DNA of 64,000 bases, taken from the NCBI RefSeq assembly GCF_030419005.1, contig NZ_CP106952.1, positions 720,158 through 784,157 of the forward strand, given 5' to 3'. The stretch comes from Eleftheria terrae. Lineage in GTDB: Bacteria > Pseudomonadota > Gammaproteobacteria > Burkholderiales > Burkholderiaceae_C. The translations under genes were made by a program, and so were the position numbers. This document shows, one piece after another, positions 14,728-35,304 of this stretch. Every line of letters begins with the position of its first letter. Position 1 is the stretch's first letter. The notes below the pieces were generated by a model that saw nothing but the letters and a program-made list of their open reading frames with translations, was not told the DNA's origin and searched no databases.

Positions 14728-17700
14728 ATGGCTTTCGATTTCCCCCTCACCGCGTCGCAGCGCGACATCTGGTTCGACCAGTGGGTGCACAGCGGGCTGC
14801 CGCTGTACAACATCGGCGGCCATGTGCGCATCGACGGGCCGCTGGACCGGGCCCGCTTCACCGAGGCGCTGGAGCTGCTGACCGCCAAGCACGACCACCT
14901 GCGCCTGGTGCTGGCCGAGCCGGCCGCCGCCGGCCAGGCACCGCGCCAGCGCTGCCTGCCCCGACTGGCCGCCGACCCCGGCTGGCACGACTTCAGCGGC
15001 GAGGCCGATGCCCCGGCCCGCGCGCTCGACTGGATGCAGCGGCGCTTCCGGCAGCCCTTTTCGCTACAGCCCGGGCGGCCGTTGTTCCGCCACGACCTGG
15101 TGAAGGTGGGCGAGGGCTGCCACTACTGGCTGATGCAGTACCACCACCTGATCGCCGACGGCGCCGCCATCGCCTTGCTCAACGACTCGATGGCCGGTCT
15201 CTACACCGCCTTGCTGCGCGGCGAGGATGGCCAGCGCCAGGCGCCGTCCTACCTGGCGCAGGTGCGCCAGGACGAGGCCTACCTGGCCTCGCCCGCCTTC
15301 ACGCGCGACCGGCAGTACTGGCTCGACAAGTACCGCAGCCTGCCGGAGCGGCCGTTTCCAGCACGGCAGGGCGCGCGTGCCGCGGCCGGCGCTGCGCCGA
15401 GCGGCAGCCTGGGCCTGGCCCTCCCGCGCGACCGGTATGCCGGCCTGCAGGCGCTCGCCGCGGCCGAGGGCAGCAGCGTCTTCCACCTCCTGCTGGGCGC
15501 CTTGTACGTGCTGTGGTCGCGCCTGAGCGGGCAGCGCGACCTGGTGATCGGCCTGCCGGTGGCCAACCGCACCGATGCCGCGTCGCGCGCCACCGGGGGC
15601 CTCTATGTCAACGTCTGCGCCCATCGCTTCGACTTCGACGACCGGCTTGGCTTCCGTGCCCTGTTGCAGGGCGTGCGCCGCATGCTGGCGCGCGACTGGC
15701 GGCACCGGCGCTTCCCGCTCGGCGATTTGCAGCGCGAGCTGGGACGGCAGGGCGGCGCTGGCGCCAGCTTGTTCGACCTCAGCGTGTCCTACGAGCCGCA
15801 TGGCCACGACGTGGCCTTCGGCCCGGCCCGCGGGCGTTCCACCGCGCTGCTCAATGGCGCCCAGCAGACGCCGCTGACCGTCTTCATCCGCGAGTTCCAT
15901 GCCGAGGGCGAGGTGCGGCTCGACCTGGTCTACAACGAGGCGCATTTCGACACGGCCGCCATCGAAGCCCTGCAACAACGGCTGCCTGCGCTGCTGGCCG
16001 CGGTGCTGCAGGCGCCCGACACCCCGCTGCACGCACTGCCGCTGCTGACCGCCGGCGAGCGGGCCCTGATGGCGGCGGGCAACGCCACCCATCGCCCCTA
16101 TCCGCGTGACAGCAGCGTGGCAGAGCTGTTCGCGGCCCAGGTCCGCCGCACGCCCGGTGCGGTGGCGCTGCAGCACGGCGGCCTGCAGCTGAGCTACGCC
16201 GAGCTGGACGGCCGGGCCGAGCGCCTGGCGCGCCGGCTGCTCGGCCTGGGCGTGCAGCCCGGCGACGCGGTGGCGGTGGTGCTGCCGCGGTCGGCGGAGC
16301 TGGTGGTGGCCGAGCTGGCAGTGCTGCGCTGCGGTGCGGTCTATGTGCCGCTGGACCCGCAGGCGCCGCCTGCCTGGCTGGAGACGGCGCTGCAGGACTG
16401 CGCCGCGCGCCTGCTGTTGACCGACACGACGGCCCGCCTTCCCGAGCGCCCGGCATGCCGCCGGCTGCATGTCGACGCCCTGGCGGACGAGGCCGCTGCG
16501 CCGATGGCCGGCCAGCCCCTTGCATGGCCCACGGCGGCCGGCGGGGCGGCCGCGGCCCGCGTGATGTACACCTCCGGCTCCAGCGGCCGGCCCAAGGGCG
16601 TGGTGGTGCCGCACCGGGCCATTGCCCGCCTGGTGCTCGACAACGGCTATGCCGACTTCGGCCCGGGCGACCGGGTGGCCTTTGCGTCCAACCCGGCTTT
16701 CGACGCTTCCACGCTGGAGGTCTGGGCGGCCCTGCTCAACGGCGGCCGGGTGGTGGTGCTGGAGCAGGCGGTGGTGCTGTCGGCGCCGCGGCTCGCGCAG
16801 GCACTGCGGGCCCACGGCATCACGGTGTTGTGGATGACGGTGGGCCTGTTCAACCGCCATGCGCTGCAACTGGGCAGCGTGCTGCGCCAGCTGCGCTACC
16901 TGATGGTGGGCGGCGACCGGCTGGATGCGGCCCTCATCGCCCAGGTGCTGCGCCAGCACCCGCCGCAACGCCTGCTCAACGGCTATGGCCCCACCGAGTG
17001 CGGCACCTTCGCCACCACCCATGCCATCGAGCGGGTGGACGACCCGGCCGAAGGCATTCCGATCGGCCGGCCCATCGGCAACACCACCGTGCATGTGCTG
17101 GACGCACACCGCCAGCCGGTGCCGGTGGGGGTGGCTGGCGAGCTGTACATCGGCGGCGACGGCGTGGCGCTGGGCTACCTGGGCCAGCCGGCGCTGAGCG
17201 CCGAGCGCTTCCTGCCCGATCCCTTCACCGCGCAGCCGCAGGCCCGGCTCTACCGCAGTGGCGACCTGGGCCGCTGGCGGTCCGACGGCACGCTGGAGTT
17301 TCTCGGCCGCAGCGACACGCAGGTGAAGATCCGCGGCTTCCGCGTCGAGCCGGGCGAGATCGAGGCGGCCCTGGCCTGTCACCCGGCGGTGCGCCAGGTG
17401 ACGGTGCAGGCGCGGTCCGACGGGGGCGCCGAGAAGCGGCTGGTGGCTTACTACACCGCGGCCGGGGACGAGGCGGCCGATGCCGCCTCGCTGCGCGAAC
17501 ACCTGGCCGGCCGCCTGCCGGACTACCTGCTGCCGGCCGCCTATGTGTGGCTGGAGCAGCTGCCCCTGACGCCCAACGGCAAGCTCGACTGGCGGGCCTT
17601 GCCCGAACCCGGTGTGGCCGCCCATGCGGCCGCCGCCTTCGAACCGCCGCGTCCCGGCCGCGAAGCCGTGCTGGCCAGCCTCTGGCGCGAGCTGCTGCGG

Positions 17701-35304: not shown

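What the first reader, a model, noticed from the sequence alone, without database searches (positions are those of the whole stretch)
14728..35304. Six-module NRPS with a starter C domain and reductase exit: predicted lipohexapeptide aldehyde or alcohol
Seen: one uninterrupted 6858-aa protein, Cstart-A-T-(C-A-T)x5-R, with an intact TGATGFLGG cofactor motif and YGQSK catalytic motif, and no TE. Known: N-terminal starter C domains attach acyl groups, and terminal R domains release carrier-bound peptides as aldehydes or alcohols. Inference: the product is an N-acyl hexapeptide ending in an aldehyde or alcohol. Peptide aldehydes are often protease or proteasome inhibitors, which would make this a bioactive scaffold. 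I do not recognise the module order from a characterised pathway.
Basis: partly seen in the sequence, partly recalled or inferred. Interest (0 to 1): 0.85.

Follow-up and report, generated by a model that had tools for sequence, protein, structure and literature searches.

The report
Six-module lipopeptide synthetase with reductase exit
A single giant bacterial enzyme appears to build a short acyl-capped six-residue peptide and release it by chemical reduction, and it sits inside a block of genes that may make a rare amino acid known from the antibiotic teixobactin.

Summary
Confirmed: 14728-35304 (+) encodes one intact 6858-aa NRPS, C-A-T x6 then R, without TE. C1 falls in a starter clade with RzmA-Cs and CDA-Cs and no internal C domain; 29 of 29 relatives examined have no A or T domain upstream in frame. 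The neighbouring 21-module line ends in its own TE-TE. C2, C4, C5 and C6 are dual C/E-like. Codes suggest acyl-D-Val-Ser-D-Tyr-D-(basic)-D-Leu-aromatic. R is closest to MxaA, so alcohol is likelier than aldehyde; nothing specific supports protease inhibition. New: compared with two cousin genomes, the gene sits between the last two genes of a conserved cassette holding a GntB-like arginine hydroxylase and an unusual PLP enzyme; both have counterparts labelled Eleftheria terrae, the teixobactin producer. A4 shares its exact code with a long-line module here and in one of the two cousins. Residue 4 may be an enduracididine. The line is an unreported member of a known kind; the supply cassette is the more interesting part. 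No product is shown.

The parts
14728..35304 (+). Six-module NRPS, 6858 aa: Cstart-A-T-(C-A-T)x5-R
14758..16062 (+). C1, starter condensation domain (HHLIADG; Ile at the acyl-gate site equal to RzmA R148)
16135..17847 (+). A1 (DALWMGGTF, Val-like)-T1
18034..21123 (+). Module 2: C2 dual C/E-like, A2 (DVWHLSLID, Ser), T2
21211..24273 (+). Module 3: C3 ordinary (non-dual) C, A3 (DASTVAAVC, Tyr/aromatic), T3; 22504-24261 is 97.2% identical in DNA to a module of the 21-module line
24460..27540 (+). Module 4: C4 dual C/E-like, A4 (DAEDIAAMI, basic; same code as residue 19 of the 21-module line), T4
27736..30777 (+). Module 5: C5 dual C/E (exact motif), A5 (DAWFLGNVV, Leu), T5
30967..34014 (+). Module 6: C6 dual C/E-like, A6 (DAYTTAGVW, nearest to aromatic A domains), T6
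34117..35301 (+). Terminal thioester reductase domain, aligned to MxaA including the C-terminal part
8074..9333 (+). GntB-like membrane di-iron arginine hydroxylase (open frame from 7774; start set by the 419-aa database entry; 347 bits to NF041365, under its cut-off of 380)
9330..10082 (+). Yip1-domain membrane protein of the cassette (start not fixed)
10089..11351 (+). Periplasmic adaptor (RND/MacA-like) of the exporter
11348..12052 (+). ABC transporter ATPase
12049..13359 (+). MacB-type permease
13412..14578 (+). Cys/Met-metabolism PLP enzyme of a YGDT/S subfamily; candidate cyclase of gamma-hydroxyarginine
35301..36158 (+). Cupin_8/JmjC-like putative hydroxylase; its ATG overlaps the NRPS stop (ATGA)
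4955..6214 (+). AspH-type hydroxylase of the cassette
6236..7630 (+). MFS exporter (found in G392's cassette, not in G096's)
42..5000 (+). 3' end of the separate 21-module NRPS line: C-A(Gly)-T-TE-TE

Best explanation
An autonomous NRPS assembly line. C1 takes an acyl-CoA, probably short to medium chain, and acylates Val on T1. Five elongation modules add Ser, Tyr (or another aromatic), a guanidino or other basic residue, Leu and an aromatic residue. The dual C/E-like domains C2, C4, C5 and C6 turn residues 1, 3, 4 and 5 into D form. The R domain uses NADPH to cut the hexapeptidyl thioester off T6, giving an aldehyde that it most likely reduces again to the primary alcohol. Predicted product: acyl-D-Val-L-Ser-D-Tyr-D-X-D-Leu-aromatic-ol, X most likely arginine-derived. 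The Cupin_8 protein may hydroxylate one residue, and the MacAB-like or MFS exporters may carry the product out. Shown from sequence: domain order, intact motifs, starter-clade membership, grouping of the dual-like domains, gene order. Inferred: substrates, stereochemistry, alcohol rather than aldehyde, and sharing of the cassette's amino-acid supply.
For: Domain order and motifs. C1 in the starter clade, SH-aLRT 100: 32 initiating domains plus C1, no internal domain. 29 of 29 relatives examined have no A or T domain upstream in frame. PDB ranking: for C1, RzmA-Cs (131 bits) and CDA-C1 (117) come first; C2 gives RzmA-Cs about 53 bits with CDA-C1 not listed, C3 gives both 52-53 bits near the foot of its list. 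Dual-type motif exact in C5, near in C2, C4, C6, and all four in one clade. R best match MxaA at 237 bits, ahead of a type I PKS reductase (155), CAR (102), MtNRP (98) and AusA (40). Myxalamid and myxochelin A synthases make alcohols (PMC2835699 passage). TE-TE ends the neighbouring line. The gate residue aligned to RzmA R148 is Ile; that site sets acyl length (PMC7804268 passages).
Against: No product, expression or mutant data. Codes were read with a GrsA anchor recalled from memory and interpreted from recalled lists; A4 and A6 have no exact match that I know. For C1 the best non-starter structure, Txo1, is not far behind (101 bits), and 29 of the 32 initiating rows in the tree were picked because they match C1. 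The tree is a quick one (LG+G4, no bootstrap), and it flags RzmA and CDA rows for letter make-up. Electron count of an R domain cannot be read from sequence; aldehyde-forming OmnF shares the fold of MxaA. The dual motif is imperfect in C2, C4 and C6 (GD replaced by AD or ED), no characterised dual domain was in the tree, and the motif itself is recalled, so epimerisation is an inference. C1 is only 46% identical to its nearest relatives, so fatty acyl rather than another acyl is an extrapolation.
Confidence: 0.7

Rival explanations
1. Same line, but R stops after two electrons: the product is an N-acyl hexapeptide aldehyde, which may inhibit a serine, cysteine or threonine protease, or cyclise as an imine.
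For: R domains can stop at the aldehyde (PMC12783407 passages); an aromatic residue at position 6 would suit a chymotrypsin-like site (recalled).
Against: R is nearest to MxaA, an alcohol former, and aligns with its C-terminal part, a region whose HTH is reported absent from aldehyde-forming OmnF. No duplicated M32 peptidase: the one downstream is the only one in the genome and had no match in the G392 or G096 stretches. Other proteases were not searched for.
Confidence: 0.3
2. The cassette (hydroxylase, PLP enzyme, cupin, AspH) serves only the 21-module line; the six-module line loads an ordinary basic amino acid (Lys, Arg or Orn) at position 4 and merely sits inside the operon.
For: In G392 and G096 the cassette exists without a six-module NRPS between PLP and Cupin8. 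The clovibactin-like Lys module reads DAEDIGTVV, close to A4's DAEDIAAMI. None of G392's three A domains that were read bears A4's code.
Against: A4 shares all nine code residues with residue 19 of the long line (64% identity over the domain) and with a module of the long line of G096, which also has the cassette. The NRPS stop overlaps the Cupin8 start.
Confidence: 0.45
3. The six-module line is not autonomous and joins the 21-module line in making one molecule.
For: Same direction, neighbouring genes, shared module sequence (97.2% identical DNA over 1758 bp).
Against: The long line has its own TE-TE, and the six-module line has its own starter C and R. Lines with the same TE-TE tail exist in G392 and G096 without it beside the cassette.
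Confidence: 0.07
4. The line is a recent recombinant that is silent or makes nothing useful.
For: It is absent between PLP and Cupin8 in two cousins, and one module is nearly identical to one of the neighbouring line, which itself shows a change of frame.
Against: A 20.6-kb frame without a stop, catalytic motifs intact, start-stop overlap with Cupin8.
Confidence: 0.12

Closest known systems
Rhizomide / holrhizin / CDA starter C domains (RzmA-Cs, HolA-Cs, CdaPS1-Cs)
   Same: C1 falls in one clade with RzmA-Cs and CDA-Cs, aligns over nearly its full length, keeps HHxxxDG
Myxalamid reductase MxaA and myxochelin MxcG R domains
   Same: Terminal NAD_binding_4 reductase, MxaA the best solved match; the MxcG model spans the last module and R, though its score is below that model's cut-off
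   Different: MxaA ends a PKS/NRPS hybrid and MxcG a siderophore line; neither makes an acyl hexapeptide (recalled)
Peptide aldehyde or alcohol NRPSs with R (omicsynin, antipain and chymostatin type; linear gramicidin; peptaibols)
   Same: Reductive release of a peptide
   Different: Different starters, lengths and residues (recalled); OmnF R is reported to lack the C-terminal HTH (PMC12783407 passage)
Teixobactin and clovibactin producers (Eleftheria terrae)
   Same: The genome holds a line whose code order and formula match clovibactin; the cassette hydroxylase and PLP enzyme have 62% and 69% identical counterparts labelled Eleftheria terrae
   Different: Teixobactin and clovibactin are TE-released depsipeptides without a fatty acyl group (recalled); this line has starter C and R
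Guanitoxin GntB/GntC enduracididine pathway
   Same: The hydroxylase is a GntB homologue (NF041365, 347 bits, below cut-off; 48% to a cyanobacterial protein bearing the GntB name)
   Different: The PLP partner is of the Cys/Met-metabolism family, whereas GntC annotates as a type I/II aminotransferase (PMC10367076 passage)

Membership tests
NRPS line initiated by a starter C domain | First C domain belongs to the starter clade | tested here: met
   Quick tree of 96 C domains: SH-aLRT 100 for 32 initiating domains plus C1, no internal domain
NRPS line initiated by a starter C domain | No carrier domain or partner synthetase upstream to donate a peptide | tested here: met
   No T or A domain upstream in frame (L054); neighbouring line ends in TE-TE
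NRPS line initiated by a starter C domain | Accepts fatty acyl-CoA or acyl-ACP | not testable with these tools
   Only the gate residue was read (Ile)
Reductase-released NRPS | Terminal R domain with intact Rossmann motif and Tyr-Lys pair, no TE | tested here: met
   TGATGFLG at 6482, YGQSK at 6630; NAD_binding_4 at 203 bits
Alcohol-forming (four-electron) R domain | Makes a primary alcohol | tested here: inconclusive
   Nearest solved relative is MxaA; activity not testable
Dual C/E domains | Extra N-terminal HH[LI]xxxxGD motif (recalled) | tested here: inconclusive
   Exact in C5 only; GD replaced by AD in C2 and C6 and by ED in C4
Dual C/E domains | Grouping apart from ordinary C domains | tested here: met
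   C2, C4, C5, C6 lie in a 26-row clade (SH-aLRT 100) without C1 or C3; no characterised dual domain was included
Peptide-aldehyde protease inhibitors | C-terminal aldehyde | not testable with these tools
   Sequence favours an alcohol
Enduracididine biosynthesis of the guanitoxin type (GntB plus GntC) | GntB-type arginine gamma-hydroxylase | tested here: inconclusive
   347 bits against a cut-off of 380; His boxes kept
Enduracididine biosynthesis of the guanitoxin type (GntB plus GntC) | GntC-type aminotransferase-family cyclase in the cluster | tested here: not met
   The PLP partner is a Cys/Met-metabolism enzyme; the rest of the genome was not searched for GntC
Enduracididine biosynthesis of the mannopeptimycin type (MppP, MppQ, MppR) | MppR-like acetoacetate-decarboxylase-fold protein in the cluster | tested here: inconclusive
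   None among the cassette genes scanned; rest of genome not searched

The most novel reading that the evidence does not exclude
The GntB-like hydroxylase (8074-9333) and the YGDT-subfamily PLP enzyme (13412-14578) form a hitherto undescribed two-enzyme route from arginine to an enduracididine (probably the allo form of teixobactin): gamma-hydroxylation, then PLP-dependent gamma-elimination with ring closure by the guanidine, on a cystathionine-gamma-synthase-like enzyme and not on a GntC-type one. The six-module line has inserted itself into this cassette and uses the product, making an acyl-hexapeptide alcohol with D-enduracididine at position 4.
Probability: 0.35. Interest if true: 0.7.

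Novelty: new member of a known kind. Interest (0 to 1): 0.5.

Why it matters
It is a self-contained, single-gene assembly line with a readable sequence and a clean release chemistry, in a genome that also carries a clovibactin-like line. If the cassette reading holds, it would suggest how teixobactin's rare amino acid is made and give a genetic handle for finding other peptides that carry it. In the listings of the paper searches that bear on this and the passages read I saw no such assignment for teixobactin.

Tried and rejected
A feeding partner for C1: the 21-module line ends in TE-TE, so rejected. M32 carboxypeptidase as a self-resistance copy: it is the only M32 gene in the genome and had no match in the G392 and G096 stretches, so not pursued. 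Full-length orthologues: none found. One search scored 762 candidates with the last 489 residues (140 passed, 120 listed); self aside, listed proteins covering at least 70% of that region are 27-44% identical. One search gave 23 loci at 30-46%, and may leave out the own genome or near kin. In one search, 9 of 299 genomes, the own one included, had an R match; the best from other genomes were 42-43%. These searches are limited by shared words and by sampling. Direct repeats at the insertion borders: no exact shared 10-mer between the two 300-bp stretches compared. G392 as a second witness for the A4 code: not met, none of its three A domains read bears it, though it is a 670-contig assembly. 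G526 has the hydroxylase at 43% but no other cassette gene in the 32.6 kb taken. Lower-scoring matches were not all examined; at least two of them (G000:C4:730951 and G096:C23:13300) are internal C domains. One search was a faulty first pass (minus-strand loci not turned round), replaced.

Full report
What is there. The window lies at the end of contig C3 (784,157 bp) of a 7.03-Mb genome with 91 Condensation matches. The gene at 14728-35304 (+) is one frame of 6858 aa. My domain scan gives Cstart-A-T-(C-A-T)x5-R and Pfam agrees, apart from C4, which my split of the query cut in two. Each T domain keeps its Ser and each C domain keeps HHxxxD; the R domain keeps TGATGFLG and YGQSK. The A-domain core motifs are present in all six, some as variants. 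The stop codon overlaps the ATG of the next gene, a Cupin_8 protein, as ATGA.

Starter or internal C domain? Four tests agree. (1) Against solved structures C1 scores best with the starter domains RzmA-Cs (131 bits) and CDA-C1 (117 bits); the next, Txo1, has 101. C2 gives RzmA-Cs about 53 bits and does not list CDA-C1, and C3 gives both starters 52-53 bits, near the foot of its list. (2) In a sample of 399 family genomes, 50 (the own one included) have a C1 match. Of the 30 loci returned, one is the window itself; in the other 29, as in the window, no A or T domain precedes the C domain in frame within the up to 1.5 kb fetched. Weaker matches were not all examined and at least two are internal. 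(3) In a quick tree of 96 C domains (LG+G4, SH-aLRT only), C1 sits in a 33-row starter clade (support 100) with RzmA-Cs and CDA-Cs and no internal domain; its nearest rows are at most 46% identical. Caveats: 29 of the 32 initiating rows were chosen as matches of C1, three duplicate rows were dropped, and the RzmA and CDA rows are flagged for letter make-up. One row labelled 'first' fell among internal domains; it begins a gene that follows another NRPS gene. (4) The adjacent NRPS line ends in TE-TE.

Acyl length. The residue aligned with RzmA Arg148 is Ile. In PMC7804268 (passages read) this site gates acyl length: Arg with C2, Met with C6, Ala with C8, and shorter side chains with longer acyl groups. 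A short to medium acyl is the guess.

Residues. Codes read on a recalled GrsA anchor: A1 DALWMGGTF (Val), A2 DVWHLSLID (Ser), A3 DASTVAAVC (Tyr/aromatic), A4 DAEDIAAMI (two acidic residues, hence a basic substrate), A5 DAWFLGNVV (Leu), A6 DAYTTAGVW. Meanings are recalled. A6 is nearest to aromatic A domains of the same genome (54-58%) and resembles DAFTVAAVW of the clovibactin-like Phe module. C2, C4, C5 and C6 carry an N-terminal dual C/E-like motif (exact in C5, with GD replaced by AD or ED in the others) and lie in one 26-row clade apart from C1 and C3. No characterised dual domain was in that tree. Residues 1, 3, 4 and 5 are therefore predicted D.

Release. The R domain's best solved match is MxaA (237 bits, including the C-terminal part), ahead of a type I PKS reductase (155), CAR (102), MtNRP (98) and AusA (40). 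PMC2835699 (passages) lists myxalamid and myxochelin A synthases among those shown to make alcohols and sets nostocyclopeptide, Lys2 and saframycin apart; the passage broke off there, and that these form aldehydes is recalled. PMC12783407 (passages) notes that aldehyde-forming OmnF lacks the C-terminal HTH. I therefore prefer the alcohol, at perhaps two to one. The protease-inhibitor idea needs the aldehyde and has no other support here.

Context. Upstream lies a separate line, C3:651268-725157, of 21 modules (one of them split by a change of frame) ending TE-TE. Between the two lines are AspH hydroxylase, MFS, GntB-like hydroxylase, Yip1 protein, RND/MacA-like adaptor, ABC ATPase, MacB permease and a Cys/Met-family PLP enzyme. 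G392:C320 has the same order (NRPS end with TE-TE, AspH, MFS, hydroxylase, Yip1, adaptor, ABC, permease, PLP, Cupin8) at 52-78% identity, with the aligned ends of PLP and Cupin8 about 90 bp apart and no NRPS between them. G096:C23 has hydroxylase to Cupin8 in the same order but no MFS match, then a more distant AspH-type gene (35%) and an NRPS whose starter C is C1's nearest relative. Both cousins belong to one genus, so gain here or loss there cannot be told apart. The six-module gene shares sequence with its neighbour: 1758 bp of module 3 are 97.2% identical to a module of the long line, and 1918 bp spanning A2 to C3 are 92.4% identical to another.

The cassette and residue 4. The hydroxylase and the PLP enzyme each have a counterpart labelled Eleftheria terrae (62% and 69% identity), the producer of teixobactin, which contains L-allo-enduracididine (PMC5238550 passages). 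That these entries come from the teixobactin cluster record is my inference. Six contig lengths occur in both homologue lists (all 41 hydroxylase lengths given, against the first 36 of the PLP list's 120 rows, self and E. terrae aside); one of them, 17208, is G392:C320, where the two genes are seen together. All 38 PLP proteins of at least 46% identity, the own one included, share YGDT/S; in the other 82 listed, at 37-42%, the pattern was found in 6 and had Asp in 1. The code DAEDIAAMI occurs in A4, in residue 19 of the long line, and in the G096 long line just before aromatic-Gly-TE-TE. Of 30 A-domain loci fetched from 10 genomes, 28 could be read and only that G096 one had it; G392's three did not. 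In guanitoxin biosynthesis GntB hydroxylates arginine and the PLP enzyme GntC cyclises the product, a reaction compared with gamma-substitution (PMC10367076 passages). A Cys/Met-family enzyme, whose members do gamma-elimination and replacement, is a plausible substitute. This is a hypothesis.

Organism. Line C3:468993-495850 reads Phe-Leu-Lys-Ser-Asn-Ala-Leu-Leu-TE with a double C domain before Asn (code meanings recalled). With hydroxy-Asn and one ester this gives C43H70N10O11, the formula listed for clovibactin from E. terrae ssp. carolina (PMC12566907 passages). The genome is probably that organism or close kin; the clovibactin sequence itself is recalled.

Novelty. I found no full-length orthologue and no paper on this line. 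The searches were (listings and abstract starts read), in an open-licence library without most subscription journals; the clovibactin paper itself is not held. Starter-C plus R lines are a known kind (recalled), so this is a new member.

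Noticed in passing
window 42-5000 and G000:C3:651268-725157: A separate 21-module NRPS line ending TE-TE; its first module appears to hold only the C-terminal half of a C domain, and the A domain of module 15 changes reading frame near C3:702.9 kb, which may be real or an assembly error.
   Followed up: partly
window 8074-9333 and 13412-14578: GntB-like hydroxylase and a YGDT-type PLP enzyme conserved together in a transporter cassette; counterparts labelled Eleftheria terrae; candidate enduracididine pathway.
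   Followed up: partly
G000:C3:468993-495850: NRPS line whose codes and calculated formula match clovibactin, which suggests the identity of the organism.
   Followed up: partly
window 20314-24261 against C3:695213-696970 and C3:719387-721297: Likely recent module exchange between the two neighbouring lines: 97.2% identity over 1758 bp and 92.4% over 1918 bp.
   Followed up: partly
G000:C4:703726-737244: NRPS frame of 11,173 aa with a starter-type first C domain that runs to the end of contig C4.
   Followed up: no
window 38493-42930: M66 peptidase carrying an I36 inhibitor domain, followed by a GH18 chitinase with a CBM6 domain.
   Followed up: no
G526:C56:43820-44731 (L105): GntB-like hydroxylase at 43% identity without any other gene of the cassette in the 32.6 kb taken.
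   Followed up: partly
window 43540-44694: Pectate lyase on the minus strand beyond the cluster.
   Followed up: no
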